Assembly: GCA_944349855.1 (NCBI GenBank)
Contig: CALVNS010000027.1
Coordinates: 1 to 33,202 of the forward strand
DNA length: 33,202 nt
Direction of reading: 5' to 3'
Source: an uncultured Eubacteriales bacterium
GTDB taxonomy: Bacteria; Bacillota; Clostridia; Christensenellales; Aristaeellaceae
Shown: piece after piece, positions 17,339 through 30,220 of the stretch
Numbering within the stretch: position 1 is the first letter of the stretch
Layout: the number at the start of each line of letters is the position of its first letter
Made by a program: the position numbers and the translations under genes
Notes under the pieces: model-generated
Database searches by the model: none
The model's input: only the letters and a program-made list of their open reading frames with translations
What the model was told of the DNA's origin: nothing

Positions 17339-18229
17339 ATGGAACTGCGCGTGCTCAAATACTTTCTGATGATTGCCCGCGAGGAAAACATGACCCACGC
17401 GTCGCAGCTTTTGCATGTGACGCAGCCCACCCTCTCCCGGCAGATCCGGGACCTGGAAAAGGAGCTGGGCGTCACGCTGTTTGAGCGGAGCAACCATCGC
17501 ATCGTCTTGACGCAGGACGGCCTGCTGCTTCGCCGCAGGGCGCAGGAGATCGTAGAGCTGGCAGAGCGCACGCAGCGGGATTTTGCCAATAGAGATGAGG
17601 AGCTCTGCGGCGAGATCGCCATCGGCAGCGGCGAAACCCGCAGCATGTCGGCGCTGGCGGAGATTCTCGCCTCCTTCCGCCAACGTCATCCCAGGGTGCG
17701 CTACCGCTTTTACAGCGGCAATGCCGACCACATCAAGGAGCGCATGGAAAATGGCACGCTGGATATGGGGCTGCTGCCCGAACCGGTGGACATCTCCAGA
17801 TATGATTTTTTCCGCGTGCCCGTGATGGAAGAATGGGGCGTTCTGACCCGGGAGGATTCTCCGCTGAGCGGCTTGGAGGCCGTCCGTCCCGAAGATCTCG
17901 TCGGGCGTCCACTGATGATCTCCGGTCGGGAATTGGTGCAAAACGAACTGGCGCACTGGTTCGGCGACAGCCTGGATCAGCTGAATATGCTCATTCGCTA
18001 TAATCTCCTTTACAACGTCGCCATGCTGGTGAAGAGCGGCTTGGGCGATGCGCTGTGCATCCGGCTGGACTGCTCGTATCCAGGGCTCCGGTTTGTGCCG
18101 CTGCACCCGCCGCTCGCCTTCGGCTCCGTGCTGATCTGGAAGAAACATCAGGTGACCTCTCCGACGGTCGGCGCGCTGATTGCGCAGGTCAAGCAATGCC
18201 TGGAAGGCATTTCTGAATATAATGGATAA
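17339..18229 (+). CDS. LysR-family regulator opening the redox island
   Basis: This 296-residue LysR-type regulator has an N-terminal helix-turn-helix (MTHASQLLHVTQPTLSRQIRD, about 19-40) and an effector domain to the end. The start is the ATG at MELRVLKYF with AAGGAAGG upstream; 31 upstream in-frame codons include the promoter and are excluded. It is clearly paralogous to the minus-strand LysR at 26157-27041: both start MExRVLxYF, share SGN-(A/T)-(D/E)-x-I in the effector domain, and carry Dx-S-x-Y-(D/N) and WKK segments at matching places. The two bracket the redox genes and probably sense related ligands. The effector is unknown. Confidence 0.92.
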   Translation: MELRVLKYFLMIAREENMTHASQLLHVTQPTLSRQIRDLEKELGVTLFERSNHRIVLTQDGLLLRRRAQEIVELAERTQRDFANRDEELCGEIAIGSGETRSMSALAEILASFRQRHPRVRYRFYSGNADHIKERMENGTLDMGLLPEPVDISRYDFFRVPVMEEWGVLTREDSPLSGLEAVRPEDLVGRPLMISGRELVQNELAHWFGDSLDQLNMLIRYNLLYNVAMLVKSGLGDALCIRLDCSYPGLRFVPLHPPLAFGSVLIWKKHQVTSPTVGALIAQVKQCLEGISEYNG

Positions 18230-18232
18230 GTA

Positions 18233-18261
18233 TTAGACATGGAAATAGAAGCTGTTATACA
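18233..18261 (+). promoter_or_regulatory. Possible promoter ahead of the redox genes
   Basis: TTAGAC (18233-18238) and TATACA (18256-18261) are spaced 17 bases. Transcription would start inside the hairpin described next, so the two elements probably interact; the call is tentative. Confidence 0.4.
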
Positions 18262-18295
18262 ATATGGGTGTCCGAACTGGACGCCCATATTTTTT
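18261..18295 (+). terminator. Hairpin with T run between LysR and the flavin reductase-like gene
   Basis: A 13-bp stem with one wobble pair (arms 18261-18273 and 18279-18291, loop GAACT) is followed by TTTT. It looks like the LysR terminator. A long reading of the next gene from an ATG at 18241 would run through it, which argues for the shorter start. Confidence 0.7.
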
Positions 18296-18328
18296 ATTGA
18301 AGGCAATGGCTTAAAGGAGATGGAGGTA

Positions 18329-18865
18329 TTGAGAAAGGACCTTGTCAGCGTGCTGGCGCTCTATCCCACCCCGCTGGTTCTGGTGGGAGCCATAACGCCA
18401 AACTGGGTATTGGCGGGCCACGTGGGCATTATGGGGCATGACCATATCATGGTGAGCTTGTCCCAGACGCATTATACCAACCGGGGTATACGGGCGCACG
18501 GGATGCTTTCTGTCCATATGGTAGAGGAAGACCTGTTCAAAAAGGCGGACCTGGCGGGATGTGTAAGCGGCGCAAAGGTGGATAAGTCAACGCTGTTTCC
18601 CTACAGCGTGACGCAGGAAGGCGTTCCGGTCATTGACCAGTCCAGGTTGACCATGGTCTGTGCCGTGGAAAGAAACGATCCAACTCCAGGATTTGACAAT
18701 TTCATTCTGAAGATCCTGCACACCTACGCGGACGAAGCAATTCTCACCCCCAATGGCAGGATCGACTATGACTCGTTTAAACCGGTGCTCTTTGAAATGC
18801 CCGGCTACACCTATCTGCGAACGGGCGAAACCATTGCCAAGTGCATGAGCCTGAACGCCAAGTGA
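18329..18865 (+). CDS. Flavin reductase-like FMN-binding protein
   Basis: This 178-residue protein resembles the flavin reductase family with an FMN-binding split barrel. It opens MRKDLVSVLALYPTPLVLVGA, the usual first strands of anaerobe members, and contains HIMVSLSQTHYTNRGI and HMVEEDLFKKADLAGCVSG, which match the family's flavin-contact and loop segments. I prefer the TTG at 18329, nine bases after AAAGGAG; the ATG at 18320 lies directly against that site. Such proteins reduce free flavin or act as small flavin-dependent reductases in the cytosol. It is the first structural gene of the island, 20 bp before the MerR gene. Confidence 0.8.
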   Translation: MRKDLVSVLALYPTPLVLVGAITPNWVLAGHVGIMGHDHIMVSLSQTHYTNRGIRAHGMLSVHMVEEDLFKKADLAGCVSGAKVDKSTLFPYSVTQEGVPVIDQSRLTMVCAVERNDPTPGFDNFILKILHTYADEAILTPNGRIDYDSFKPVLFEMPGYTYLRTGETIAKCMSLNAK

Positions 18866-18885
18866 AGAGAGGAGCTACGCTGCCC

Positions 18886-19236
18886 ATGACCAAGGAAGAG
18901 GCAAGCAAGCGCTACCAAATTCCCATCGAGATTTTGAACGAATATGAAGGCTGGGGCCTGTGCGGCACCGTGAAGCAGGTCATGGGCTGCTGGCAGTATG
19001 ACGATCAGGACCTGGAACGCCTGAGCGTCATCATGGCGCTGCATGACATGGGCTTTGCCGCCGACGAGGTGGAAAGCTATATGCGTCTGCTGCTTTCGCA
19101 GGCAGACACCACCCCAGAGCGCATGCGCATGCTGGAAAGAAGGCGCAACGCGGCGCTGGATGAAATTCACCTGAAGGAAAGGCAACTGCAGCGACTGGAT
19201 TACTTGCGCTACAAGATGCGCACGCAAAAGGCGTGA
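18886..19236 (+). CDS. MerR-family regulator
   Basis: This 116-residue protein has a short MerR-type winged helix-turn-helix (TKEEASKRYQIPIEILNEYE, then CWQYDDQDLERLSVIMALHDMGF) and a C-terminal dimerisation helix ending RLDYLRYKMR. C26 and C35 lie in the DNA-binding half, and no C-terminal metal-binding cysteine motif is present. The ATG is 12 bp after GAGAGGAG; an upstream GTG at 18841 would overlap the preceding gene. It sits 13 bp before the aldo/keto reductase gene. MerR proteins beside aldo/keto reductases in Bacillota often respond to aldehydes or other electrophiles; that role here is inference. Confidence 0.86.
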   Translation: MTKEEASKRYQIPIEILNEYEGWGLCGTVKQVMGCWQYDDQDLERLSVIMALHDMGFAADEVESYMRLLLSQADTTPERMRMLERRRNAALDEIHLKERQLQRLDYLRYKMRTQKA

Positions 19237-19249
19237 GAAAGGAGCTTCT

Positions 19250-20287
19250 ATGCAATACGTCAAGCTGGGAACATCCGACCTGAACGTTTCCGGGGTATGT
19301 CTGGGCTGCATGGGATTTGGCGACGCGGCCCACGGCCAGCACAGCTGGACGCTGGATGAGGAATCGTCCCGAAAGATCATCCGCCGGGCGTTGGAACTGG
19401 GCGTCAACTTCTTTGACACGGCCATCGTGTATCAAAACGGCACCAGCGAGCAGTACCTGGGCCGCGCCCTGCGGGACTTTGCCCGCCGGGAAGACGTAGT
19501 AGTGGCCACCAAGTTCCCCGTGCGCGCCCAGGAGGAGATCGACGCAGGGATCAGCGGTCAGGAGCATGTGCGCCGCATGCTGGATCAAAGCCTGCAAAAC
19601 CTGGGCATGGACTACGTGGATCTGTACATCTGCCATATGTGGGACTACCGGACCCCGCTGTACGAGATCATGGAGGGATTGAATCGCGCCGTAAAGGCGG
19701 GCAAGGCGCGCTACATCGGCATCTCCAACTGCTTTGCCTGGCAACTGTGCAAGGCCAACGAGCTGGCCCGTCGGGAGGGCTTTGCGCCCTTCGTATCCGT
19801 GCAGGGGCATTACAACCTGATCTTCCGGGAGGAAGAGCGGGAGATGATCCCCTACTGCCGGGAGGAGGGCATTGCCGTTACGCCTTACAGCGCGCTGGCC
19901 GGCGGCCGCCTGTCAAAGCTGCCGGGGGAGACCTCCAAGCGTTTGGAGGAGGATACCTACGCCAAGGGCAAGTATGACGCCACCGCGATGCAGGATGCCC
20001 GCATCATTGAGCGGGTGGCGGAGTTGGCCCGTTCCCATGGCGTAACCATGACGGAGATTTCCCTGGCCTGGCTGATGGGCAAGGGCGCCATCCCCGTGGC
20101 CGGCGCCACCAAGCTCAGCCATGTGGAGGGCGCGGCCGGCGCCACGGATTTGCGCCTCTCGGCAGAAGAAACCGCCTATCTGGAGGCGTGTTACGTGCCG
20201 CACCGGCTGGTGGGCGTCATGGCGCAGAACACCCAGGAAACAGCGAACAAGCCGCAAGTCTGGTCTTCCAATACGCCCAAAATCTAA
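19250..20287 (+). CDS. Aldo/keto reductase (YajO-like)
   Basis: This 345-residue cytosolic aldo/keto reductase closely resembles E. coli YajO along its length, in segments such as LGCMGFG, EESSRKIIRRALELGVNFFDTA, YLGRALRDFARREDVVVATK and GKARYIGISN. The TIM-barrel tetrad is present: D and Y in FFDTAIVY, K in ATKF and H in YICHMWD. The C-terminal NADPH segment (VAGATKLSHVEGA) is intact. Substrates are usually small aldehydes or ketones reduced with NADPH. It has AAAGGAG before its ATG and lies 20 bp before the cytosolic flavodoxin gene in the same operon. Confidence 0.94.
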   Translation: MQYVKLGTSDLNVSGVCLGCMGFGDAAHGQHSWTLDEESSRKIIRRALELGVNFFDTAIVYQNGTSEQYLGRALRDFARREDVVVATKFPVRAQEEIDAGISGQEHVRRMLDQSLQNLGMDYVDLYICHMWDYRTPLYEIMEGLNRAVKAGKARYIGISNCFAWQLCKANELARREGFAPFVSVQGHYNLIFREEEREMIPYCREEGIAVTPYSALAGGRLSKLPGETSKRLEEDTYAKGKYDATAMQDARIIERVAELARSHGVTMTEISLAWLMGKGAIPVAGATKLSHVEGAAGATDLRLSAEETAYLEACYVPHRLVGVMAQNTQETANKPQVWSSNTPKI

Positions 20288-20307
20288 AGCAGAAAGGAGC
20301 ATTTGTT

Positions 20308-20796
20308 ATGAAAACCCTTGTGGCTTACTTTTCCGCCAGCGGGGAAACCGCCCGCCTGGCCAAGACTCTCGCACGCGCTGCGCAGGCAGATCTGTACGAG
20401 ATTCGGCCCGCGCAGCCCTATACCGCCGCGGACCTCAACTGGCACGACAATCAAAGCCGTTCCTCCGTGGAGATGAAAGATCCGGCTTGCCGCCCGGCAA
20501 TCGCCGGGGACGCGCCGGACCTGACGGCATACGATACGGTCTTCGTCGGCTTTCCCATCTGGTGGTATCAGGCCCCGCGCATCATTGAGACGTTTCTGGC
20601 CTCGTGCGATTTTTCCGGCAAGCGTGTGGTGCCCTTCGCCACCTCCGGCGGCAGCGGCATGGGCCGCACGGAGGAGATCCTGCAAAAAGCCTGCCCCTCA
20701 AAGGTCCGCTGGCTCCCTGGCAGGCGCCTGGACAGCCGCGCCAGCCTGGACACCCTTCACGATTGGCTGCAAGCTCTCCAGATCCATCAAAAATGA
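20308..20796 (+). CDS. Cytosolic flavodoxin (Flavodoxin_4-like)
   Basis: This 162-residue flavodoxin carries FMN as a one- or two-electron carrier. The phosphate-binding loop is YFSASGET (7-14), the flavin-stacking segment is FPIWWYQAPR (W85, W86), and SGGSGMGR (113-120) forms the third flavin loop. It has no signal peptide, so it is cytosolic. I start at the ATG after AGAAAGGAG; the open frame reaches 40 codons upstream into the aldo/keto reductase gene. It is immediately followed by a paralogue with a signal peptide (10-bp gap), a striking inside/outside pair. Its reductant could be the flavin reductase-like protein upstream (inference). Confidence 0.92.
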   Translation: MKTLVAYFSASGETARLAKTLARAAQADLYEIRPAQPYTAADLNWHDNQSRSSVEMKDPACRPAIAGDAPDLTAYDTVFVGFPIWWYQAPRIIETFLASCDFSGKRVVPFATSGGSGMGRTEEILQKACPSKVRWLPGRRLDSRASLDTLHDWLQALQIHQK

Positions 20797-20806
20797 GGAG
20801 GAATGC

Positions 20807-21400
20807 ATGATGAAAAAAACGTTTGCCCTGGCGCTGGCCCTGCTGCTGAGCCTGACCTTCGCCCGTGCGGAGGAGCAGGAACCCGCCTTCACGCCCACCG
20901 ACTCCACCGTGCTGGTCGCCTGCTTCTCGGCCACGGGCAACACCTGGCCGCTGGCGGAGTACGCCGCGGAATACCTTGGCGCCGACCTGTTCCGCATCGA
21001 GCCGGAAATCCCCTACACCGATGCGGACCTGAACTACAGCGACAGCAACTGCCGCGCCAATCAGGAGATGAACGATGAAACCAGCCGGCCGGCCCTGGCC
21101 GCGACGGTGGAAAACATCGCGCAGTACGACACGGTGGTCCTCGCCTTTCCCATCTGGTGGGGACAGGCGCCGCGGCTGATCGAAACCTTTGTGGAAGCCC
21201 ACGACCTGAGCGGCAAGACCGTGCTCACCTTCTGCACCTCCGCCAGCAGCGGCTATGGCCGCACCGGCGAAATTCTCGCCGCCCTGACCGATGAAACGGT
21301 CAACTGGATCGAAGGGGCGCGCTTCCCTGCCTCCATCACGGCAGAGGAAATGCAGGCCTGGCTCGCGGAAAAAGGCATTGCACCCTATACGGCAGAGTAA
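20807..21400 (+). CDS. Exported flavodoxin, paralogue of the preceding gene
   Basis: This 197-residue protein has a Sec signal peptide (MMKKTFALALALLLSLTF, ARA at 19-21) followed by a full flavodoxin domain. Visible elements are the CFSATGNTW phosphate loop (39-47), PYTDADLNYSDSN, FPIWWGQAPRLIETF and SASSGYGRT. The domain aligns with the cytosolic flavodoxin just upstream in every motif. There is no lipobox cysteine at the cleavage site. FMN would have to be loaded outside the cytosol or before export. The ATG at 20807 (or 20810) follows GAGGAGGA. It lies 34 bp before the decarboxylase-cupin fusion. The electron donor and acceptor are unknown. Confidence 0.9.
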   Translation: MMKKTFALALALLLSLTFARAEEQEPAFTPTDSTVLVACFSATGNTWPLAEYAAEYLGADLFRIEPEIPYTDADLNYSDSNCRANQEMNDETSRPALAATVENIAQYDTVVLAFPIWWGQAPRLIETFVEAHDLSGKTVLTFCTSASSGYGRTGEILAALTDETVNWIEGARFPASITAEEMQAWLAEKGIAPYTAE

Positions 21401-21434
21401 CGGCCCTTTGAATTGCATGAAAGGAGATAAAACC

Positions 21435-22193
21435 ATGTCTGTCAAACAAACCGCGGGGCGCAACGCCCTGGGAACCTTCGCCCCGAAATTTGCAGAACTC
21501 AATGACGACGTGCTCTTTGGGCAGGTCTGGAACCGCACGGACAAGCTCTCCCTGCGCGACCGCTCCCTGGTGACGGTTACGGCGCTGATGGCGCAGGGAC
21601 TCACGGATTCCTCCTTCCGCTATCACCTGACCACTGCCAAGCAAAATGGCATCACCCGGGAGGAGATCGCCGAGATCCTGACCCATGCCGCCTTCTATGC
21701 GGGCTGGCCCAAGGCATGGGCTGCGTTCAACATGGCCAAAGAGGTCTGGTCGGACGATGCCGCGCCGGCGCAGGACGCCAAGCAGGCGCACGCGGCTTCG
21801 ATGGTGTTCCCCATCGGCCAGCCCAACGACGGCTTTGCGCAGTATTTCATCGGGCAAAGCTACCTCGCGCCGCTTTCCACCCAACAGGTGGGCATCTACA
21901 ATGTGACCTTTGAGCCGGGATGCCACAACAACTGGCATATCCATCATGCCGATGAAGGCGGCGGGCAGATCCTGGTGTGCGTAGCGGGGCGTGGCTGGTA
22001 TCAGGCGTGGGGCGAGCCCGCGCAGCAGCTCACACCCGGCGACGTGGTGAACATTCCTGCGGGGGTCAAGCATTGGCACGGCGCGGCCCGGGACAGCTGG
22101 CTGAGCCACCTGGCCATCGAAGTGCCCGGCACAAACGGCCGCAATGAGTGGCTGGAGCCGGTCACCGACGCGCAATATGAGGTGCTGGCGTGA
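21435..22193 (+). CDS. Carboxymuconolactone decarboxylase-cupin fusion protein
   Basis: This 252-residue protein joins two domains. Residues 1-105 are a carboxymuconolactone decarboxylase (CMD) fold, with LSLRDRSLVTVTALMAQG, H64 in RYHLTTAKQNGIT and ILTHAAFYAGWPKAW. It lacks the CxxC of AhpD, so it is not an AhpD-type peroxidase adaptor. Residues 145-240 are a cupin with HIH (H168, H170) and PGDVVNIPAGVKHWHG (H213, H215), suggesting a bound metal. The fusion recurs in redox clusters of anaerobes with unsettled function; lactone, keto-acid or electrophile chemistry is plausible. AAGGAGA precedes the ATG. Its stop overlaps the next gene's GTG start. Confidence 0.9.
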   Translation: MSVKQTAGRNALGTFAPKFAELNDDVLFGQVWNRTDKLSLRDRSLVTVTALMAQGLTDSSFRYHLTTAKQNGITREEIAEILTHAAFYAGWPKAWAAFNMAKEVWSDDAAPAQDAKQAHAASMVFPIGQPNDGFAQYFIGQSYLAPLSTQQVGIYNVTFEPGCHNNWHIHHADEGGGQILVCVAGRGWYQAWGEPAQQLTPGDVVNIPAGVKHWHGAARDSWLSHLAIEVPGTNGRNEWLEPVTDAQYEVLA

Positions 22194-22723
22194 ACGTGCT
22201 GGTACTCATGGGCAGTCCCAATTCACGGGGCTCTACATACCTGTTGGCGGACGCATTTTGCAAGGGCGCGCAGGAGTGCGGACATGCGGTCAAGCGCATC
22301 GACGTGGCGCATGCCCGCCTGGCCCCCTGCGGCGGCTGCGTCGCCTGCGGTTACGACGGGCCCTGCGTCCAGCAGGACGACATGGAATGGATCGGCGCGG
22401 CCATTGTCCAGGCCGATATGCTGGCGCTGGCAACGCCCTTGTATTACTATGGCATGTCGGCGCAGCTCAAAACGGCGATTGACCGCTTTTGCGCCTTCAA
22501 TGGCCGCATTCAGCGCAAGCGCATCAAGTCCGCGCTGCTCAGCGTGGCATGGAACGCGGACGGCTGGACCTTTGACGCGCTTGAGGCACATTACCGCACA
22601 TTGGTCCGATATTTGAACCTTCAGGATCAGGGCATGGTGTTGGGCAAAGGCTGCGGCACGCCCGCCATGACGCGCGCAAGCGTCTATCCTGAACAGGCAT
22701 ACCGATTGGGGAAACGGCTTTGA
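22190..22723 (+). CDS. Iron-sulfur flavoprotein (NADPH-dependent FMN reductase fold)
   Basis: This 177-residue flavodoxin-fold protein carries a compact cysteine motif C47-x2-C50-x2-C53-x5-C59 (PCGGCVACGYDGPC). It matches the 4Fe-4S site of the archaeal iron-sulfur flavoprotein Isf. The FMN loop is MGSPNSRGSTYLLA near the N-terminus, and ATPLYYYGMSAQLK is the flavin-side segment. Isf-type proteins pass electrons between ferredoxin and FMN and can reduce oxygen or peroxide in anaerobes. The start is a GTG overlapping the previous stop (GTGA), so translation is coupled to the CMD-cupin protein. A second protein of this family is broken by an amber codon at 32431-33021. Confidence 0.9.
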   Translation: MNVLVLMGSPNSRGSTYLLADAFCKGAQECGHAVKRIDVAHARLAPCGGCVACGYDGPCVQQDDMEWIGAAIVQADMLALATPLYYYGMSAQLKTAIDRFCAFNGRIQRKRIKSALLSVAWNADGWTFDALEAHYRTLVRYLNLQDQGMVLGKGCGTPAMTRASVYPEQAYRLGKRL

Positions 22724-22739
22724 CGCAAAAGGAGCGCGC

Positions 22740-23402
22740 ATGAAATCCAAAGTGAAGACGGGCGTGGATATCGCCATGACGGCCCTGTTCCTCTGCCAGA
22801 TGGGCTATCACATGATGGACAACCGGATACATGAGTGGACGGGCGTGACGCTGTGCGTGCTGTTCCTTCTCCATCATGCGCTCAACCCCGGCTGGCATCT
22901 TGGGCTGTTCAGGGGAAGGTATCCCGCCTCCCGCGTGTGGCTGACCCTCGTGGATCTGCTGCTCACCCTGGCGATGGCGGCGGTCATCGTCAGCGCCATT
23001 CTGGTTTCCCGCCACGTGTTCGACTTCCTGGGCCTGCGCATGCGGGCGGTGGGGCGGCGCATTCACATGCCGGCCACCATGTGGGCGTTCGTGCTGACGG
23101 GGCTGCATATCGGGCTGCACTGGCACATTGTGCTGGGCAAGCTGGGCAAGCCGGGAAAACGCGTCTGGCTGGCCAGGCTGGTGCTGGTAGCCACAGTTGC
23201 CTTTGGCCTGTGGGAATTTGCCACGCGGGGCCTGTGGATGGAGCTGTTCATGCTCCGGGAATTCGCCTTCCTGGAATATGGCGAACCCCTGGCGGTATTC
23301 TTCGCCTCCTACGCGGCCGTGCTGTGCGTATGGGCTGCACTGTCCTACTACATCGGCAAAGCGTTACGAAATGAGCGCCGCAGCCGAACAAAAGGGAGGT
23401 AA
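22740..23402 (+). CDS. DUF4405 membrane protein, cytochrome b561-like
   Basis: This 220-residue protein has about five membrane helices. The first two resemble DUF4405: MGYHMMDNRIHEWTGVTL then LFLLHHALNP. Histidines H24, H31, H45, H46, H53, H92, H109, H123, H127 and H129 cluster near helix ends, and the GLHIGLHWH repeat (121-129) recalls heme-binding helices of the formate dehydrogenase gamma/cytochrome b561 type. Heme binding is inference from family likeness. Between a cytosolic iron-sulfur flavoprotein and an exported flavodoxin, it is the natural candidate to carry electrons across the membrane. The ATG follows AAAGGAG; the next gene starts 7 bp later. Confidence 0.84.
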   Translation: MKSKVKTGVDIAMTALFLCQMGYHMMDNRIHEWTGVTLCVLFLLHHALNPGWHLGLFRGRYPASRVWLTLVDLLLTLAMAAVIVSAILVSRHVFDFLGLRMRAVGRRIHMPATMWAFVLTGLHIGLHWHIVLGKLGKPGKRVWLARLVLVATVAFGLWEFATRGLWMELFMLREFAFLEYGEPLAVFFASYAAVLCVWAALSYYIGKALRNERRSRTKGR

Positions 23403-23409
23403 CCGGTTC

Positions 23410-24120
23410 ATGAAAAAACCATTGATTCTACCTCTGTGCCTGCTGCTCCTCCTGGCAGCCTTTCCCGCAGCCGCGCAGGAATCGCCTTCTATCCTCATCG
23501 CCTATTTCACCTGGGCGGAAAACACCGTCATTGACGACCAGGAAGCCTCTCTGGCCAGCGCACTGGAACATTACGACAATATGGGCGACACCCACAGCGG
23601 CGCGGATGCCACGTCCTCGGCCAGCCTGCTGATGCCAGGCAACACGGCGGTCATGGCGTCCCACATTCAGCGCCTGACGGGCGGGGATCTGTTTTCCATT
23701 CAGGCGGAGCAGCCCTATCCCAGCAACTACGACGACTGCCTGGACCGCGCGGCGGAGGAGCTGGACGACGGCGTCCGCCCGGCGCTCAAGACCCACATAG
23801 AGGACATGGACGCCTACGACGTGGTGTTTCTGGGCATGCCCAACTGGTGGTATTCCTGTCCCATGGCCATTCTGACCATTGTAGAGTCGTATGACTTTTC
23901 GGGCAAGACGGTCATTCCCTTTGTGGCCCACGGCACGGGCGGCATTTCCGGTTCGGTGCGCGACATGAGCGCCTCCCTGCCGCAGGATTGCACGGTGCTC
24001 CCGCCCGTCGGCGTATACCGGCCGGATATCCCCACCTGTGGCCCGGCGATTGAAGAATGGCTGAACGAACTCGCGCTGCCCTTTCCCATCGGGGATTCCC
24101 TGGCGGCGGCAAAAGAATGA
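23410..24120 (+). CDS. Exported flavodoxin-like protein (second)
   Basis: This 236-residue protein has a Sec signal peptide (MKKPLILPLCLLLLLAAF, AAA at 20-22) and a flavodoxin domain. The phosphate loop is YFTWAENT (32-39), an atypical sequence. An insertion of about 45 residues follows before the conserved ADLF-like GGDLFSIQAEQPYP. The flavin segments GMPNWWYSCPMA and AHGTGGISGS are present. The insertion is seen in long flavodoxin-like proteins of gut anaerobes. The ATG follows GGGAGG. The gene ends in ATGA overlapping a 42-codon ORF of doubtful reality. Function is unknown; extracytoplasmic electron transfer is inferred from position. Confidence 0.88.
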   Translation: MKKPLILPLCLLLLLAAFPAAAQESPSILIAYFTWAENTVIDDQEASLASALEHYDNMGDTHSGADATSSASLLMPGNTAVMASHIQRLTGGDLFSIQAEQPYPSNYDDCLDRAAEELDDGVRPALKTHIEDMDAYDVVFLGMPNWWYSCPMAILTIVESYDFSGKTVIPFVAHGTGGISGSVRDMSASLPQDCTVLPPVGVYRPDIPTCGPAIEEWLNELALPFPIGDSLAAAKE

Positions 24121-24245
24121 GAAAGGCATTGGGATATCTGTCCTGCCTGGATCGCGGCAATGGCATGAGAGAAGCCGCCTGCCGCGCAGACGAAGGATTT
24201 TGCCGGCGCAATGGAATGGCCGTGGGAAGCGCCGGCTGCGACTGA
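24117..24245 (+). CDS. Doubtful 42-residue cysteine-containing ORF
   Basis: The ATG overlaps the stop of the exported flavodoxin gene (ATGA). The product would have four cysteines (10, 22, 29, 41) and no recognisable motif. It has no ribosome site of its own beyond coupling, and its third-codon-position GC looks lower than in its neighbours. It fills the only sizeable gap (147 bp) in the island. It could be a relic of a larger gene or simple leader sequence for the DUF362 gene. Confidence 0.2.
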   Translation: MRKALGYLSCLDRGNGMREAACRADEGFCRRNGMAVGSAGCD

Positions 24246-24267
24246 ACACGCGTAAGGAGGTCTCATC

Positions 24268-25212
24268 ATGAAAAGGGCATTATGCTTTCTGTTGCTCATG
24301 GCGCTCTTTCCCCTGTATGCGCTTGCCGAGACGGCCGATGCGCCGGCGGTGTACATGACCTCCCGGATCACCCCGGAAGGGCTGATGGCCGTGTACGAAG
24401 CGCTGGGACGCGAGGCACAGGGCGAAAACGTGGCGGTCAAGATCTCCACCGGGGAGACGGGCAGCAACTATCTGCGGCCCGAGCTCATCGGAGAATTTGT
24501 ACAAGCCATCGGCGGCACCATCGTGGAGTGCAACACCGCCTATGGCGGCCAGCGCGCCTCCACGGCCATGCACTATCAGCTGGCTGAGGATCACGGCTAT
24601 ACGGCCATCGCGGATGTGGACATCATGGACGAAAATGGCTCCATGACCCTGCCGGTCACCGGCGGCACGGTGCTCACCGAAAACTACGTGGGCGTCAACT
24701 TGCAAAACTACGACTTTCTGGTGGTGCTCTCCCACTTCAAGGGGCATTCTATGGCTGGCTTCGGCGGCGCAATCAAGAACCTGTCCATCGGCTGCGCTTC
24801 GTCCGAGGGCAAGGCGTGGATTCACTCCGGCGGCACGGGCGGCAGCATGTGGGGCGGCGAGCAGGACGCGTTTCTGGAGGCCATGGCCGAAGCGGCCAAG
24901 TCCGTTGTGGACTACTTTGGGGACGGTGAGCGCGCGCTGTACATCAACGTCATGAACCGCCTGAGCGTGGATTGCGACTGCGACGGCAGCCCCGCCGAGC
25001 CGGACATGCACGACATTGGCATCCTGGCCTCTGTCGATCCTGTGGCGCTGGACCAGGCGTGCATTGACCTGGTCTATGCGGCGCAGGACGGCGGCTCGCT
25101 CATTCAGCGCATCGAAAGCCGCAACGGCCTGCACACGCTGGAGCACACGCAGACCATCGGCTTTGGCAGCCGTGCATATACGCTGGTGAACATCGATGAT
25201 GGACTGGATTGA
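24268..25212 (+). CDS. Exported DUF362-domain protein
   Basis: This 314-residue protein has a Sec signal peptide (MKRALCFLLLMALFPLYALA, cleavage after residue 20) followed by a DUF362 domain. Marks are VAVKISTGETGSNYLRPELI, CNTAYGG, the VVLSHFKGHSMAGFGGAIKNL core and ILASVDPVALDQA. DUF362 proteins are usually cytosolic iron-sulfur-associated proteins of unknown reaction, often with a ferredoxin tail; this one has no ferredoxin tail and is exported. Cysteines in IGCASSEG and VDCDCDG could hold a metal, but this is not shown. AAGGAGG precedes the ATG. It overlaps the permease gene by 17 bp, so the two are translationally linked. Confidence 0.88.
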   Translation: MKRALCFLLLMALFPLYALAETADAPAVYMTSRITPEGLMAVYEALGREAQGENVAVKISTGETGSNYLRPELIGEFVQAIGGTIVECNTAYGGQRASTAMHYQLAEDHGYTAIADVDIMDENGSMTLPVTGGTVLTENYVGVNLQNYDFLVVLSHFKGHSMAGFGGAIKNLSIGCASSEGKAWIHSGGTGGSMWGGEQDAFLEAMAEAAKSVVDYFGDGERALYINVMNRLSVDCDCDGSPAEPDMHDIGILASVDPVALDQACIDLVYAAQDGGSLIQRIESRNGLHTLEHTQTIGFGSRAYTLVNIDDGLD

Positions 25213-26104
25213 GCGCGAAGCGATCTACCTGTGGTATTACCTGGACCTCCAGCTGCGGCAGATTCTGCCCTACTGGGCGCTGGGCATCCTGCTGGGATCG
25301 GCGGTGTCGGTGTTTGGCAAGCGTTGGATTCACGGCGCTTTTGCCGGCGTCGGCCGCGGCAAATGGGGCTGGATGGGCGTTGTCCCGGCCAGCCTGCTGG
25401 GCATCGCCTCGCCATTGTGCATGTATGGCACCCTGCCCATCGCGGCCTCCTTTTCCGAAAAGGGGGTCAGAGATGACCATCTGGCGGCGTTCATGATGTC
25501 CTCCGTCCTGCTCAATCCCCAACTGCTGATGTATTCGGCAGCGCTGGGGCAATCCGCGCTGCTCATCCGGCTTGCCTCGTGCTTCCTGTGCGGCTGCGCG
25601 GCGGGGTGGCTGGTACGGGCCTGCTGTCGGGGCAAGCCCTTCTTTGACTTTCGCGGCTTTCATGCCCGCGCCGGCCGGGATACGCACCCCAGCCTGCCGA
25701 TACGCTATCTGCTCAATGTGCTGCGCAATATCCGGGCCACAGCGCCGTGGTTCTCTGTGGGCGTTGTTTTGACTGCCCTATACCAGATCCACGTCCCCCA
25801 AGATTGGGCTGCCGGCCTGTTTGGCGGCGGTGGCTTTGGCGTGCTGCTGGCCGCGACGCTGGGTGTTCCACTGTACATGTGCGGCGGAGGCACCATTCCG
25901 CTGTTGATGCAATGGCTGGCAAGCGGCATGACGCTGGGCAGTGCAGCCGCATTTATGCTCACAGGGCCGGCGACCAAGATCACCAATCTCGGCGCCTTGA
26001 AGATCGTGTTGGGCGCGAAGCACTTTTCCCTGTATCTGGGGTTTGTGCTGGCCTTTTCGCTCCTGACCGGTCTGGCCGTCAACGCCTGGTTTGCCGTGGC
26101 CTGA
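25196..26104 (+). CDS. Permease of the ArsP/DUF318 family
   Basis: This 302-residue membrane protein has about eight helices and the duplicated core of the DUF318/ArsP permease family. The first repeat contains IASPLCMYGTLPIAASF and LLNPQLL; the second contains VPLYMCGGGTIPLLMQW and FMLTGPATKITNLGAL. Family members export metals or organoarsenicals, or have unknown cargo. The conserved proline/cysteine/glycine motifs keep one cysteine in each repeat. The start (ATG at 25196 or 25199) lies inside the DUF362 gene. Tight coupling to an exported DUF362 protein suggests it supplies a metal or small ligand to the outside, which is inference. It converges on the minus-strand LysR gene 52 bp away. 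Confidence 0.85.
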   Translation: MMDWIEREAIYLWYYLDLQLRQILPYWALGILLGSAVSVFGKRWIHGAFAGVGRGKWGWMGVVPASLLGIASPLCMYGTLPIAASFSEKGVRDDHLAAFMMSSVLLNPQLLMYSAALGQSALLIRLASCFLCGCAAGWLVRACCRGKPFFDFRGFHARAGRDTHPSLPIRYLLNVLRNIRATAPWFSVGVVLTALYQIHVPQDWAAGLFGGGGFGVLLAATLGVPLYMCGGGTIPLLMQWLASGMTLGSAAAFMLTGPATKITNLGALKIVLGAKHFSLYLGFVLAFSLLTGLAVNAWFAVA

Positions 26105-26156
26105 GGTGCGTCTGCTTTGACCCACGAGCGCGGGGCGGCAAGGCCGGGAAGGGGCG

Positions 26157-27041
26157 CTATGGCATGTCGCCATACCGCCTCTGAAGCGCGTCCAGCAGCC
26201 GTCGGGCCGCCGCAGAGAAGATTTGGTACTTCTTCCACACCACATACATCTTCGTGGTCAATGCGGGGACGAGGGGGCGAAAACACAATTCGCTGTCCTC
26301 GCCTGAGTCGGCCAGCCTGTCAAAGCTGAGGGCGTATCCCAGCCCTTCGCGCACCAGCACTGTGGCGTTGTACACCAGGTTAAAGGTCGCCACCACGTGC
26401 AGCGCGTCGACCTTTTCCCGAAAGAACTTCGGATAGTCCGCCTTCATGCCCTGCCGCGAGCAGATCAGGGGCAATGCCAACAGATCCTCCATGCGGACGG
26501 CTTCCTGCCTGGCCAGGGGGCTGTCCTTTCGCATGATCACGCCCCAGGTGTCGACATGGGGCAGTTCGAGGTAATTGTACTTGGATAGATCCACATCCTG
26601 CACGATGACGGCAAAGTCCAATATCCCCGCATCCAGCCGCCCCGCAATATCCTCCGTGTTTCCGCTGTGCAGGTGGCACCGGATGCGGGGATGCCGGGCC
26701 TGCACGTCCCGCAGGCAACGCGCCAGGCAACGCATGCCGTCGGACTCCGCGCAGCCTACATGGACGTCGCCTCCCTCGTCCGCATCGAGCGCTCGAAACT
26801 CTTCCGTAATTTTATCCGTCATGTTCAGCACATCTTCGGCTCGCTTGCGCAGCAACATCCCGGCATCCGTCAGCCGGATGCTGTAATTGGTGCGCACGAA
26901 CAGCTTCTGCCCCAGTTCCTCCTCCAGGTCCTTGAGCTGCTTGGACAGCGTGGGCTGAGAAATGTGAAGTCGAACCGCCGCGTGGGTGATGCTCTCCTCC
27001 CGAGCCACCTCCAGAAAATAGCGCAAGACGCGAATCTCCAT
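26157..27041 (-). CDS. LysR-family regulator, paralogue of the first island regulator
   Basis: This 294-residue LysR protein has the N-terminal helix-turn-helix ITHAAVRLHISQPTLSKQLKD and an effector domain to the end. GGAGG precedes its ATG. It is divergent from the small-protein/alcohol dehydrogenase/exported reductase operon, and the shared intergenic region holds a dyad and a promoter in each direction. It should therefore control that operon. Its similarity to the LysR at 17339 suggests duplication within the island and related effectors. Two cysteines (IRCHLHSGN and LICSRQG) could be redox-responsive, but this is speculation. Confidence 0.93.
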   Translation of the reverse strand: MEIRVLRYFLEVAREESITHAAVRLHISQPTLSKQLKDLEEELGQKLFVRTNYSIRLTDAGMLLRKRAEDVLNMTDKITEEFRALDADEGGDVHVGCAESDGMRCLARCLRDVQARHPRIRCHLHSGNTEDIAGRLDAGILDFAVIVQDVDLSKYNYLELPHVDTWGVIMRKDSPLARQEAVRMEDLLALPLICSRQGMKADYPKFFREKVDALHVVATFNLVYNATVLVREGLGYALSFDRLADSGEDSELCFRPLVPALTTKMYVVWKKYQIFSAAARRLLDALQRRYGDMP

Positions 27042-27059
27042 GCATACACCTCCTCTGCC

Positions 27060-27088
27060 AGTATAGCAGGCCCAATTATTCTATTCAA
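27060..27088 (-). promoter_or_regulatory. Promoter of the second island LysR gene
   Basis: On the minus strand TTGAAT (27083-27088) and TATACT (27060-27065) are spaced exactly 17 bases, 19 bp upstream of the LysR ATG. Confidence 0.75.
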
Positions 27089-27094
27089 GAATAA
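27076..27094. promoter_or_regulatory. LysR-type dyad in the divergent region
   Basis: TTATTC (27076-27081) and GAATAA (27089-27094) form an inverted repeat separated by seven bases. It overlaps the -35 of the LysR promoter, the usual place for autorepression, and lies about 20 bp upstream of the divergent operon's -35. Confidence 0.6.
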
Positions 27095-27115
27095 CTTGAT
27101 ATAGAAACAAAGTAT

Positions 27116-27144
27116 TTGATATTTCCCCCTTTTGCGATTATCCT
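27116..27144 (+). promoter_or_regulatory. Promoter of the small protein-alcohol dehydrogenase-reductase operon
   Basis: TTGATA (27116-27121) and TATCCT (27139-27144) are spaced 17 bases. The predicted start of transcription, near 27151, falls just before the GAAGGGGG ribosome site, giving a very short leader. Confidence 0.65.
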
Positions 27145-27166
27145 ACAGGGTGAAGGGGGCGATGGC

Positions 27167-27427
27167 GTGGCGGAGGCTTCGGATGCAAGGGCAATGCTCC
27201 GGCAAAACCTGGCGGATGCCGGATGCGGCGGCGAGCTGACCGAACAGATTCTGCGCCTGTCCGCCGATGGACAGATTGCGCAGGAAATCGCGCTGCTCCT
27301 GGAGCATCGCCGGGCCGTGCTGGACGGCTGTCACGCCGCGCAGAGACGGCTGGACTGTCTGGATTACCTGATCTACCGGCTCAGACAAAAACAGAAGGCA
27401 GGAGGAAACGATCATGATGAGCTTTGA
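27167..27427 (+). CDS. Small helical protein resembling a MerR C-terminal domain
   Basis: This 86-residue protein is predicted all-helical and has no DNA-binding domain. Its C-terminal half (LEHRRAVLDGCHAAQRRLDC then LDYLIYRLR) aligns with the dimerisation helix of the island's own MerR regulator (LERRRNAALDEIHLKERQLQ then RLDYLRYKMR), sharing LE, RR, LD, H, LDYL and the final arginine. I start at the GTG at 27167, seven bases after GAAGGGGG; an upstream TTG lies before the predicted transcription start. Its end overlaps the alcohol dehydrogenase start by 14 bp. Similar small ORFs recur beside such dehydrogenases in Clostridia as far as I recall. A role as a MerR-dimer partner is inference. 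Confidence 0.72.
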   Translation: MAEASDARAMLRQNLADAGCGGELTEQILRLSADGQIAQEIALLLEHRRAVLDGCHAAQRRLDCLDYLIYRLRQKQKAGGNDHDEL

Positions 27428-28589
27428 TTTTTACAACCCCACCCATCTGCTGTTTGGCAGCGGCAAACTGAACGCCCTGCACGCGCAGCCCATGCCCGGG
27501 AAGAAGGCGCTGCTGCTGATTTCCACCGGCAAATCCACGAAGGAGACCGGCTCCCTGGCCAGAACGCAAGAGCAGCTGTCGCTTGCCGGGGTGGCGTATG
27601 TGGTCTGCCCCAAGATTCACGAAAACCCCTCCAAGACCTGTGTGATGGAGGCTGCCGCCTTTGCCAGAGAGCAGGGCTGCGATTTCATCGTAGCGCTCGG
27701 CGGCGGCGCGGTGCTGGATGCCTCGGTGGCGGTAGCGGCCATGGCCACCAATCCCGGCGACCTGTGGGATTACGTCTCCGGCGGCACCGGCAAGGGCCAG
27801 CCGCTGATGAACGATCCGCTGCCCATCGTCACCATCGCCACCACCTCCGGCACCGGCTCGGAGATCAACTGCTGGGGCGTGATTTCCAACCTGGCCACGC
27901 ATGAAAAGATCGGCTTTGGCGGCGACCCCCGGCTGGTGCCGGTGCTCTCTGTGGTGGATCCGGAGCTGATGCGCAGCGTTCCCTCCAAGTATACGGCGTT
28001 CCAGGGCTTTGACGCGCTGTTCCACCACACCGAGGTGATGATGAGCAAGGGGTGCAACGTGCTCAGCGAGACCCTCGCCCTTTCCGCCATTGAAAACATC
28101 GCCCGCTACCTGCCCCGCGCCGTGCAGGAGGGCTCAGATCTGGAGGCGCGGGAACATGTGGCCTATGCCAGCACGCTGGCGGGCATGACCATGCAGCTGA
28201 CCAGCACCACCGCCCAGCACTCCATGGAGCATGCCATGAGCGCCTATCATCCGTCTCTGCCCCACGGCGCGGGCCTGATTATGATCTCTGTAGAATTTGC
28301 CCGGTTCTTCATCGAGCGCCACGCCTGCGACGGGCAGTTCATCAAAATGGCGCGGGTCATGGGTATGCCACAGGCCGAGAGCGCGCAGGACTTCCTGACG
28401 GCGCTGATCCGCCTGCAGGAGGCCTGCGGCGTGGACGGTTTGAAGATGAGCGACTATGGCATGACCAAAGAGGAGTGCATGACGCTGGCCGTCAACGCGC
28501 GGGGGACGATGGGCGGCCTGTTCCTCGCCAACCCCTGTGAACTGAACGACGTGGATTGCGCCCGCATCTTTGAAAGGGCATACCGTTAA
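27414..28589 (+). CDS. Iron-containing alcohol dehydrogenase
   Basis: This 391-residue group III (iron-type) alcohol dehydrogenase resembles the YqhD/butanol dehydrogenase branch. The nucleotide site is GGGAVLD (97-102) and TTSGTGSE (143-150). Metal ligands expected from the family are D200, H204, H273 and H284 (GFDALFHH, SMEHAMS, LPHGAG). It would reduce aldehydes to alcohols with NAD(P)H in the cytosol. The start overlaps the small-protein gene (two consecutive ATGs at 27414 and 27417). It is followed 10 bp later by the exported aldo/keto reductase. The operon as a whole suggests detoxification or use of a carbonyl compound. Confidence 0.94.
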   Translation: MMSFDFYNPTHLLFGSGKLNALHAQPMPGKKALLLISTGKSTKETGSLARTQEQLSLAGVAYVVCPKIHENPSKTCVMEAAAFAREQGCDFIVALGGGAVLDASVAVAAMATNPGDLWDYVSGGTGKGQPLMNDPLPIVTIATTSGTGSEINCWGVISNLATHEKIGFGGDPRLVPVLSVVDPELMRSVPSKYTAFQGFDALFHHTEVMMSKGCNVLSETLALSAIENIARYLPRAVQEGSDLEAREHVAYASTLAGMTMQLTSTTAQHSMEHAMSAYHPSLPHGAGLIMISVEFARFFIERHACDGQFIKMARVMGMPQAESAQDFLTALIRLQEACGVDGLKMSDYGMTKEECMTLAVNARGTMGGLFLANPCELNDVDCARIFERAYR

Positions 28590-28599
28590 AGGAGGACGC

Positions 28600-29562
28600 A
28601 TGAAAAGGATACGCGTGATCCAGGCTTGCCTGCTGGCGCTGCTCTCTCTGCTTTGGACCGCCGCTGCATCGGCCGGTGCAGATCAATCACGGATGACCGC
28701 CTCGGGGTCGCAGGAAGTTCCTTCTAATCCTGGCTCCTTCGATTTCACCACCCGCACCGTCACCCTGAACAGCGGATATACCATGCCCATCAACGGCCTG
28801 GGAACCTACAGCCTGCATGGAGACGAATGCGTCAACGCCGTAAAGGCTGCGCTGCAGTGCGGCGTGCGTCTCATCGACACCGCCTCCGCCTACGGCAACG
28901 AAGATGAGATCGGCCGGGCGATTCGGGAGAGCATGGCGGAGCTGGGCATTTCAAGGGAAGAGATCTTTGTAATCACCAAGATCTACCCCGGCAGCGAGAT
29001 GGCCAACCCCGAGGCCTCCATCCAGGCCTGCCTGGACCGCCTGGACATCGGCTATGTGGATATGATGCTGCTCCATCACCCGGACAGCCATGATGTGCAG
29101 GCATACAAGGCCATGGAGCAGTTTGTGCAAGCGGGCAAGATCCGCTCCATCGGCCTGTCCAACTGGTATGTGGAGGAGCTGGAAACCTTTTTGCCTCAGG
29201 TCGACATCCTGCCTGCGCTGGTGCAGAATGAAATCCATCCGTACTATCAGGAAAATGACGTGATTCCCTACATCCAAGGCCTTGGCATCACGGTCCAGGG
29301 ATGGTATCCGTTGGGCGGCCGCGGGCATACGCAGGAGCTCTTGAACGACGAGGTGATCTGCGACATCGCGCAGGCCCATGGCGTATCCTCCGCGCAGGTC
29401 ATTCTGCGCTGGAATCTGCAAAAGGGCGTCGTGGTCATTCCCGGCTCCAGCAATCCCGATCATATTCTGGAAAACACGCAGCTGTATCACTTTGTTCTGA
29501 GCGACGAGGAGATGGAGCGCATCAACGCCTTGGACCGCGGCGAAAAACACGACTGGTATTGA
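28600..29562 (+). CDS. Exported aldo/keto reductase
   Basis: This 320-residue protein has a Sec signal peptide (MKRIRVIQACLLALLSLLW, ASA at 23-25) and a 25-residue linker before a complete aldo/keto reductase barrel. The tetrad is intact: D93, Y98, K127 and H159, and the NADP-binding segment IPGSSNPDHILEN is present. It resembles 2,5-diketo-gluconate reductase-type enzymes. The signal has no twin-arginine motif, so Sec export (unfolded, without cofactor) is expected; NADPH is not normally available outside. This makes its chemistry puzzling. AAAGGAGG precedes the ATG. An upstream in-frame ATG would overlap the dehydrogenase gene and hide the signal peptide. Confidence 0.9.
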   Translation: MKRIRVIQACLLALLSLLWTAAASAGADQSRMTASGSQEVPSNPGSFDFTTRTVTLNSGYTMPINGLGTYSLHGDECVNAVKAALQCGVRLIDTASAYGNEDEIGRAIRESMAELGISREEIFVITKIYPGSEMANPEASIQACLDRLDIGYVDMMLLHHPDSHDVQAYKAMEQFVQAGKIRSIGLSNWYVEELETFLPQVDILPALVQNEIHPYYQENDVIPYIQGLGITVQGWYPLGGRGHTQELLNDEVICDIAQAHGVSSAQVILRWNLQKGVVVIPGSSNPDHILENTQLYHFVLSDEEMERINALDRGEKHDWY

Positions 29563-29807: not shown

Positions 29808-30143
29808 CTATTCTTCGTCCAAGCGGCTCTTTTGGTAGTCCCTCCCCCACGCTTCCATGGCGTCCATGAGCGGGCGCAGCGATTTTCCCAAATCGCTCAG
29901 CGCATACTCGACGCGGGGCGGCACCTCCGCATAGACGGTGCGGGTGATGATGCCATCCTCCTCCATGGAGCGGAGGCTGTCCGCCAGCACCTTCTGGCTG
30001 ATTCCCCCCAGATCCCGGCGCAGTTCATTGAAGCGCCAGGGGCGCTGCATCAGGTTTCGTATAATCAGAAGTTTCCATTTGCTCCCGATCAACTGTACCG
30101 TAGTGGCCACGGGGCAAGCCGGCATTTCCGCTTTGGTCAGCAT
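29808..30143 (-). CDS. HxlR-family regulator
   Basis: This 111-residue winged helix-turn-helix protein is of the HxlR family (YodB, HypR, HxlR). Marks are the N-terminal ACPVATTVQLIGSKWKLLI, then RPWRFNELRRDLGGISQKVL, and the wing segment EVPPRVEYALSDLG. C10, next to a proline, is in the place of the redox-sensing cysteine of YodB/HypR, which responds to quinones, diamide or hypochlorite. I chose the ATG after GGAGAGG; the open frame reaches 75 codons further through the promoter. It is divergent from the macrodomain/sirtuin pair and has two inverted repeats in its control region. Confidence 0.9.
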   Translation of the reverse strand: MLTKAEMPACPVATTVQLIGSKWKLLIIRNLMQRPWRFNELRRDLGGISQKVLADSLRSMEEDGIITRTVYAEVPPRVEYALSDLGKSLRPLMDAMEAWGRDYQKSRLDEE

Positions 30144-30188
30144 CTGCGCCTCTCCTCTCCGGATTCCAGAATGGAATGCTATAGTTTG

Positions 30189-30217: not shown

Positions 30218-30220
30218 GCA

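What the first reader, a model, noticed from the sequence alone, without database searches (positions are those of the whole stretch)
18329..29562. Redox island with matched cytosolic and exported carriers
Within 11 kb there are one cytosolic and two exported flavodoxins, an exported DUF362 protein, an exported aldo/keto reductase, an iron-sulfur flavoprotein, a CMD-cupin fusion, a multi-histidine DUF4405 membrane protein, a permease, and cytosolic aldehyde/alcohol reductases, with LysR, MerR and LysR regulators. The signal peptides and motifs are seen directly. The inference is a membrane-spanning redox system in which DUF4405 moves electrons between the inner flavoproteins and the outer flavodoxins to act on an external carbonyl or quinone compound. 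I know of no described pathway with this set.
Basis: partly seen in the sequence, partly recalled or inferred. Interest (0 to 1): 0.78.

Follow-up and report, generated by a model that had tools for sequence, protein, structure and literature searches.

The report
Cross-membrane flavin redox gene island
A gut bacterium carries, side by side, genes for electron-carrying proteins inside the cell, a likely heme wire through the membrane, and matching carriers and a reductase outside; relatives in which some of these parts are joined in one protein suggest that they work together on a compound outside the cell.

Summary
In detail: at 18320-29562 lie one cytosolic and two exported Flavodoxin_4 proteins, exported DUF362, an exported DkgA-like aldo/keto reductase (AKRx), DUF4405, and cytosolic partners. 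Part of the idea is in print: PMC11334425 (2024) found heme b in one DUF4405 protein and flavinylated Flavodoxin_4 in DUF4405/apbE clusters. The window fits, with its only ApbE on another contig. Flavodoxin_4 lies within 5 kb of DUF4405 in 15 of 22 relatives' loci, against 0 of 35 control windows; four relatives fuse the two. I found no paper on the rest: AKRx belongs to an exported clade (leader in 23 of 25 rows) that keeps the catalytic tetrad, lacks the NADPH-phosphate clamp (25 of 25), and is fused to exported flavodoxin in 8 proteins. Substrate, heme loading and electron flow are untested. New variant of a known kind.

The parts
17339..18229 (+). LysR1 regulator of the left module
   Evidence: HTH_1 + LysR_substrate
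18261..18291 (+). 14-pair terminator-like hairpin + T run between LysR1 and the left operon
   Evidence: consensus match only
18320..18865 (+). FlavRed, flavoredoxin-like flavin reductase, predicted cytosolic (start moved from 18239 by homology)
   Evidence: PF01613; flavoredoxin structures 3bnk/2d5m; start by relatives. Its hydrophobic segment falls in the domain's own first strand
18886..19236 (+). MerR regulator, nearest NmlR but far below its cut-off
   Evidence: PF13411, NF041849 33 of 175 bits
19250..20287 (+). AKR1, cytosolic aldo/keto reductase
   Evidence: PF00248
20308..20796 (+). FldC, cytosolic Flavodoxin_4
   Evidence: PF12682, no leader
20807..21400 (+). FldX1, exported Flavodoxin_4 without loop insertion
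   Evidence: PF12682; leader MMKKTFALALALLLSLTFARA|EEQ
21435..22193 (+). CMD-cupin fusion, cytosolic here, with a leader in 19 of 21 Bacteroidota loci
   Evidence: PF02627 + PF07883; relatives
22190..22723 (+). FMN_red protein with 4-Cys motif (iron-sulfur flavoprotein type)
   Evidence: PF03358; motif 44 of 44
22740..23402 (+). DUF4405, predicted bis-heme b membrane cytochrome, six hydrophobic segments
   Evidence: PF14358; conserved His; segments
23410..24120 (+). FldX2, exported Flavodoxin_4 with a loop insertion holding DATSSAS (ApbE-type flavinylation motif)
   Evidence: model pLDDT 79.9
24268..25212 (+). exported DUF362, LarA-like predicted fold
   Evidence: PF04015; model and fold search
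25196..26104 (+). ArsP_1 permease; follows DUF362 in 8 of 12 other loci with DUF362, two of the other four being cut by a contig end
   Evidence: PF03773
26157..27041 (-). LysR2, regulator of the right module
   Evidence: LysR divergent from the AKRx genes in many relatives
27116..27427 (+). small conserved ORF between LysR2 and Fe-ADH
   Evidence: near AKRx in 8 of 20 loci vs 0 of 35 controls
27414..28589 (+). iron-type alcohol dehydrogenase, cytosolic
   Evidence: PF00465; nearest GbsB/FucO models, below their cut-offs
28600..29562 (+). AKRx, exported DkgA-like aldo/keto reductase
   Evidence: PF00248; leader; exported clade

Best explanation
The island is an extracytosolic flavin electron-transfer system in two modules. 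Left operon (18320-26104): cytosolic flavoproteins (FlavRed, FldC, FMN_red) pass NAD(P)H electrons to DUF4405, a two-heme cytochrome b across the membrane, which reduces the exported flavodoxin FldX2. FldX2 is predicted to hold FMN covalently, attached by the genome's only detected ApbE, encoded elsewhere. Right module (26157-29562, own LysR): a cytosolic alcohol dehydrogenase and the exported reductase AKRx. Exported flavodoxins (FldX1 type, non-covalent FMN) would then feed AKRx or act directly on an external carbonyl or quinone, while AKR1 and the alcohol dehydrogenase treat the same kind of compound inside. Shown here by sequence: gene content, leaders, conserved histidines, motif, fusions, co-location. 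Inferred: heme and FMN loading, electron direction, donor, AKRx reduction by flavodoxin, substrate. Stepwise belief: DUF4405 -> FldX2 about 0.75; inner flavoproteins as donor about 0.5; flavodoxin -> AKRx about 0.3; carbonyl substrate about 0.4.
For: Within 5 kb of DUF4405 in 22 loci of 18 genomes: Flavodoxin_4 15/22, AKR1 8/22, CMD-cupin 5/22, FlavRed, DUF362 and ArsP 4/22 each, against 0, 1, 0, 0, 0 and 0 of 35 control windows. DUF4405 His31 and His45 30 of 30 rows, His109 30 of 31 (the exception is the cut row L145), His123 31 of 31; rows include the window and one duplicate. Four DUF4405-flavodoxin fusions: L032 direct (five segments, inner loops basic, so the flavodoxin is outside), L055, L143 and L151 with an FGE-like domain between (L143 and L151 by BLAST only). 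The flavinylation-type motif is in 14 of 109 flavodoxins, all 14 with leaders (0 of 38 without); 8 of 9 motif loci hold DUF4405 against 19 of 58 other loci. ApbE lies in the same cluster in L065, L130 and L132 and in the genomes G000, G002, G009, G089 and G046, all five examined. The three Flavodoxin_4 genes found in the genome are all in this island. No MenA found, so no quinol donor of that kind. Exported AKR clade with 8 flavodoxin fusions, at least 4 changes forced on the tree. DUF4405 in 9 of 18 AKRx genomes against 30 of 382 class genomes, nine of these 30 being AKRx genomes themselves.
Against: The sister species (L150) has most of the left operon but no FlavRed or FMN_red hit, no AKRx or small ORF in 20 kb, and only pieces of the alcohol dehydrogenase gene; Ventricola L022 shows nothing of the set beyond CMD-cupin downstream. 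So the set is mosaic and the proposed donors are not all needed. CMD-cupin loci seldom hold DUF4405 (6 of 78). No ferrochelatase found in G000, so heme would have to be scavenged (genome 92.8% complete). The fused flavodoxins and FldX1 lack the covalent-flavin loop. NAD(P)H, the usual AKR cofactor, is not expected outside. p-values treat related loci as independent.
Confidence: 0.55

Rival explanations
1. Two independent stress cassettes that happen to adjoin: a cytosolic aldehyde/quinone detoxification operon (AKR1, FldC, FMN_red, CMD-cupin, Fe-ADH) under LysR/MerR, with exported proteins that do unrelated envelope work and no electron path between them.
For: Many relatives carry CMD-cupin with LysR alone or with FMN_red; the right module recurs without the left one and is missing or broken in the sister species; MerR is nearest to the stress regulator NmlR, far below cut-off.
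Against: Fusions join DUF4405 with flavodoxin and flavodoxin with AKRx; Flavodoxin_4 near DUF4405 15/22 vs 0/35.
Confidence: 0.25
2. Exported AKRx works without the cell's electrons: a closed-cycle enzyme with a tightly kept nicotinamide cofactor that moves hydride between two external substrates, as recalled for periplasmic glucose-fructose oxidoreductase.
For: Tetrad DYKH kept and phosphate clamp lost in 25 of 25 clade rows; most fusion genomes tested show no DUF4405.
Against: Recurrent fusion to a flavodoxin (8 proteins in 7 genomes) implies flavin chemistry; sequence cannot show cofactor retention.
Confidence: 0.15
3. The DUF362-ArsP_1 pair marks a metal or organometal handling system, the flavoproteins reducing an organoarsenical or metal before export.
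For: ArsP_1 follows DUF362 in 8 of 12 other loci with DUF362, two of the other four being cut by a contig end; permease nearest the SO_0444 Cu/Zn efflux model, far below its cut-off (93 of 300 bits).
Against: The pair is in only 4 of 22 DUF4405 loci, and no ArsP was counted in 20 AKRx loci (a cut DUF362 lies in L195), so it is an accessory; no arsR-type regulator or other ars gene was seen among the proteins scanned.
Confidence: 0.1

Closest known systems
DUF4405 cytochrome + ApbE-flavinylated Flavodoxin_4 clusters (Huang et al. 2024, PMC11334425; abstract and passages seen)
   Same: DUF4405 with four central His, exported Flavodoxin_4 with an insertion between strand 1 and helix 1 carrying the flavinylation motif, in Firmicutes; ApbE in the genome.
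   Different: apbE is not in the cluster here; the paper's main text has no hit for DUF362, aldo or muconolactone; here two more Flavodoxin_4 genes (one cytosolic, one exported without the loop), an exported AKR, DUF362-ArsP and CMD-cupin are added.
DkgA/2,5-diketo-D-gluconate reductase (AKR family)
   Same: Fold and catalytic tetrad; PDB matches include 1vp5, 1mzr and 1m9h.
   Different: Exported, fused in relatives to flavodoxin and surface-type domains, and lacking the Lys and Arg that bind the NADPH 2'-phosphate.
MsrPQ and Listeria flavin-based extracellular electron transfer (recalled; MsrQ likeness of DUF4405 also in PMC11334425)
   Same: Cytosolic reductant -> membrane heme or quinone step -> outer redox protein.
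   Different: Other membrane protein family, other outer protein, no MenA found in this genome.
TM1010/GtHNL-type cupins and carboxymuconolactone decarboxylase
   Same: Both halves of CMD-cupin match solved members (2f4p, 4bif, 4g9q).
   Different: Fused; below the NCBIfam cut-offs for both activities.

Membership tests
DUF4405 / flavinylated-flavodoxin electron-transfer system | DUF4405 with four conserved heme-ligand His | tested here: met
   His31 and 45 in 30 of 30 rows, His109 in 30 of 31 (exception: cut row L145), His123 in 31 of 31
DUF4405 / flavinylated-flavodoxin electron-transfer system | exported Flavodoxin_4 with a flavinylation motif in a strand1-helix1 insertion | tested here: met
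   FldX2 DATSSAS, leader present
DUF4405 / flavinylated-flavodoxin electron-transfer system | apbE in the gene cluster (the paper says only a minority of DUF4405 proteins co-localise with apbE) | tested here: not met
   single ApbE on contig C61, beside DUF1846 and SpoIID-SH3 genes
DUF4405 / flavinylated-flavodoxin electron-transfer system | heme b bound and FMN covalently attached | not testable with these tools
   needs protein; no ferrochelatase found
DkgA-type NADPH aldo/keto reductase | catalytic tetrad Asp-Tyr-Lys-His | tested here: met
   DYKH in 25 of 25 clade rows and 11 of 11 outside rows
DkgA-type NADPH aldo/keto reductase | Lys/Arg clamp for the NADPH 2'-phosphate | tested here: not met
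   IPGSSNPDH; clamp absent in 25 of 25 clade rows; of 11 outside rows 5 keep both, 2 Lys only, 4 neither
DkgA-type NADPH aldo/keto reductase | cytosolic location | tested here: not met
   leader in 23 of 25 clade rows by a home-made rule
Iron-sulfur flavoprotein (Isf) type FMN_red | compact C-x2-C-x2-C-x4-7-C motif (recalled) | tested here: met
   window C-x2-C-x2-C-x5-C; 44 of 44 homologues with x3-8
LarA (NPN) superfamily, for DUF362 | LarA-like fold | tested here: inconclusive
   Foldseek E 1e-6 but TM 0.47 on a model of pLDDT 77.8; LarC in genome
ArsP organoarsenical efflux permease | equivalog-level match to a known efflux family | tested here: not met
   PF03773 yes, NCBIfam SO_0444 93 of 300 bits

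The most novel reading that the evidence does not exclude
A lineage of cell-surface aldo/keto reductases in gut Clostridia runs on electrons from exported flavodoxins instead of free cytosolic NADPH, so that carbonyl compounds are reduced outside the cell. Flavodoxin and reductase, in some species with a wall-binding domain, are joined in one protein, and in other species are supplied by a DUF4405 heme wire.
Probability: 0.22. Interest if true: 0.86.

Novelty: new variant of a known kind. Interest (0 to 1): 0.62.

Why it matters
If right, gut Firmicutes, and perhaps Bacteroidota (CMD-cupin with a leader in 19 of 21 loci), have a modular outer-surface reductase system for dietary or host carbonyls and quinones. 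It would give the published DUF4405/flavodoxin wire a candidate terminal enzyme, and it raises a sharp question: how an aldo/keto reductase can work where NADPH is not available. Natural fusions give ready single-protein constructs to assay.

Tried and rejected
Signal-peptide calls by my simple rule gave false hits for AKR1 and missed or misjudged some proteins with upstream-extended starts; AKR1 is treated as cytosolic. The label 'YqhD' used in scripts was dropped. A first motif count (12 of 114) missed proteins because of wrong strand-1 placement; one search replaced it. The L081:9045 flavodoxin ORF is broken and was left out of the structure alignment. DUF362 as an aminotransferase relative (E 0.34) was rejected as chance. 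Rnf genes next to ApbE on C61 were looked for among the ORFs scanned and not seen. A segment count for fusion L055 was not clear (5 at a strict, 8 at a lax threshold), so only L032 is used for sidedness. Literature (open-access library only): no paper on an exported AKR with flavodoxin in the listings of searches (one gave none); DUF362 with flavodoxin or with gut gave one unrelated paper each. Of PMC8238504 and PMC10434189 I saw passages only; they did not bear on the AKR part. Structures: no distance between FldX2 Ser72 and FMN could be measured. No mobile-element test of the island was made.
Full report
WHAT IS THERE. The window lies on contig C27 of an assembly of 2.73 Mb, 92.8% complete. 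Its same-genus relative G002 matches Candidatus Onthenecus intestinigallinarum: the same match position on a 100413-base contig appears as L021. Order on the + strand: LysR1, FlavRed, MerR, AKR1, FldC, FldX1, CMD-cupin, FMN_red, DUF4405, FldX2, DUF362, ArsP_1; then LysR2 on the minus strand; then a small ORF, an iron-type alcohol dehydrogenase and AKRx on the + strand. The left genes are close-packed on one strand. A 14-pair terminator-like hairpin lies between LysR1 and FlavRed. The layout suggests two units, each with a LysR.

LEADERS. FldX1, FldX2, DUF362 and AKRx each show one hydrophobic segment within residues 1-24 after basic residues; FldC and CMD-cupin show none. Of 13 DUF362 relatives, 12 have a leader by my rule. 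Export was judged by a simple rule, not by a trained predictor.

CO-OCCURRENCE. 80 CMD-cupin loci were fetched, the best of 587 found. Rich relatives: L065 (Eisenbergiella MAG: MerR, FlavRed, flavodoxins, AKR, CMD-cupin, FMN_red, DUF4405, DUF362, ArsP, motif flavodoxin, ApbE), L099 (Monoglobus MAG, without a DUF4405 hit) and G009/L128. DUF4405 relatives: 19 of 396 genomes of the order including own. Within 5 kb of DUF4405 in 22 loci (18 genomes): Flavodoxin_4 15, AKR1 8, CMD-cupin 5, FMN_red 5, FlavRed 4, DUF362 4, ArsP 4, AKRx 3, ApbE 2. In 35 control windows, the first 10 kb of 35 regions (40 fetched from the same or related genomes, 5 shorter than 10 kb dropped): 0, 1, 0, 2, 0, 0, 0, 0, 0. 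For 78 CMD-cupin loci: Flavodoxin_4 36, FMN_red 23, LysR 18, AKR1 15, FlavRed 13, but DUF4405 only 6, DUF362 2 and ArsP 2. For 20 AKRx loci: Flavodoxin_4 12, LysR 12, small ORF 8, alcohol dehydrogenase 4, DUF4405 2, and no DUF362, ArsP or FlavRed. So the set is a mosaic: CMD-cupin is a common partner of flavodoxins, DUF4405 a less common one. In the sister species (L150) most of the left operon is kept at 78-92% identity, but FlavRed, FMN_red, the small ORF and AKRx gave no tblastn hit in 20 kb, and the alcohol dehydrogenase gave only pieces of its first 133 residues.

THE WIRE. DUF4405 His31 and 45 are present in 30 of 30 rows, His109 in 30 of 31 (the exception is the cut row L145), His123 and 127 in 31 of 31; the rows include the window and one duplicate. 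The two pairs are 14 residues apart, as in bis-heme cytochromes b (recalled). The window protein shows six hydrophobic segments at a lax threshold. Huang et al. 2024 (PMC11334425, abstract and passages) expressed an Oscillospiraceae DUF4405 protein and saw heme b, and showed by gel that Flavodoxin_4 proteins with an insertion between strand 1 and helix 1 are flavinylated by ApbE. A 2015 paper (PMC5898192, passages) had placed DUF4405 in the cytochrome b family. FldX2 has such an insertion, with DATSSAS; relatives read DATTSAS, DAVSGAS, DASTSAS and the like. The motif is in 14 of 109 flavodoxins, all with leaders, against 0.3% in shuffles; 8 of 9 motif loci hold DUF4405 against 19 of 58 others. 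The genome's single detected ApbE is on C61 beside unrelated genes.

FUSIONS. L032 (Lachnospiraceae MAG) joins DUF4405 to a motif flavodoxin; its DUF4405 part scores just under Pfam's cut-off (25.2 of 26.7 bits). It has five hydrophobic segments, with the basic loops on one side, so the flavodoxin is outside. L055, and by BLAST the unnamed L143 and L151, join DUF4405, an FGE-like domain and a flavodoxin. L059 (Oscillospiraceae MAG) joins SLH repeats, Flavodoxin_4 and AKRx. L180 joins a cyclophilin-like domain to AKRx.

THE EXPORTED AKR. AKRx relatives at E 1e-70 occur in 19 of 391 class genomes including own. In a 36-row tree they form a clade (25 rows, 100/99); 23 of 25 have leaders; the flavodoxin fusion needs at least 4 changes on well-supported branches. 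Tetrad DYKH is kept in 25 of 25. The usual IPKS...R is IPGS...H (or the same with one neighbour changed) in 25 of 25. The two changes correspond to K232G and R238H, which a published table lists for the redesigned enzyme 1M9H (PMC4580623, one passage); that this design favours NADH is recalled, and the residue match is my own alignment. Against a strict link to export: of 11 rows outside the clade 4 also lack both residues, 3 of them without leaders.

LIMITS. DUF4405 is found in 9 of 18 AKRx genomes against 30 of 382 class genomes, nine of these 30 being AKRx genomes; yet 5 of 6 unnamed fusion genomes lack a match. These must get electrons otherwise, or the fusion does not need them. The genome of L059 was not tested. 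No ferrochelatase and no MenA were found in G000, consistent with scavenged heme and an inner flavoprotein donor; both are absence in an incomplete assembly.

OTHER PARTS. DUF362 folds like lactate racemase LarA by prediction (E 1e-6, TM 0.47), keeps HFKGH, GGA-x-KN and CDC motifs in 8 of 8 aligned rows, and the genome has LarC; it may be a metal or hydride enzyme, unproven. ArsP_1 follows it in 8 of 12 other DUF362 loci; of the other four, L020 and L195 are cut by a contig end, L089 and the distant L063 show none. The CMD-cupin has a leader in 19 of 21 Bacteroidota loci (by record title) and in 0 of 58 others; one of the 80 loci could not be read.

VERDICT. Real, recurrent in parts, and more than a stress operon, but its electron-wire core is a described system. 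The new and testable part is the exported aldo/keto reductase clade tied to exported flavodoxins.

Noticed in passing
window 30512-32195; L056, L136, L194: A macrodomain protein-ADP-ribose hydrolase beside a sirtuin-like (SirTM type, recalled) gene; the same pair recurs in the same fetched stretch as flavodoxin/AKR genes in three relatives.
   Followed up: no
L065:6745-8046, L055:11486-13804, L099:12438-14618, L143:9723-11900, L151:6965-9142: FGE-sulfatase-like domain fused to Flavodoxin_4, in three of these also to DUF4405; an unexplained architecture in anaerobes.
   Followed up: partly
L147:2547-3803, L146:9696-10790: DUF4405 proteins with a tail of short Cys motifs (C-x-G-C-x3-C-x6-C in L147 twice; C-x-G-C-x3-C-x6-C in L146 once), perhaps a metal site.
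   Followed up: no
L195:526-3030: One protein with a leader by my rule, CMD, Cu_amine_oxidN1 and cupin domains (two CMD and two cupin stretches), next to DUF362, AKRx, DUF4405 and a flavodoxin.
   Followed up: partly
L060:8931-9926, L093:8931-9926: Flavin reductase with a lipoprotein-like leader in Bacteroidota, fused to an ABM domain (Pfam for L060; L093 by sequence likeness).
   Followed up: no
L020:4537-5592, L021:8398-9705, L180:9219-10736: Cyclophilin-like domain (PF18050) fused to exported flavodoxin, DUF362 or AKRx.
   Followed up: no
L150 (sister species) 10614-11004: Pieces of the alcohol dehydrogenase gene in more than one frame directly after ArsP_1: perhaps a remnant of the right module, or an assembly error.
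   Followed up: no
window 29808-30236: HxlR regulator downstream of AKRx on the minus strand.
   Followed up: no
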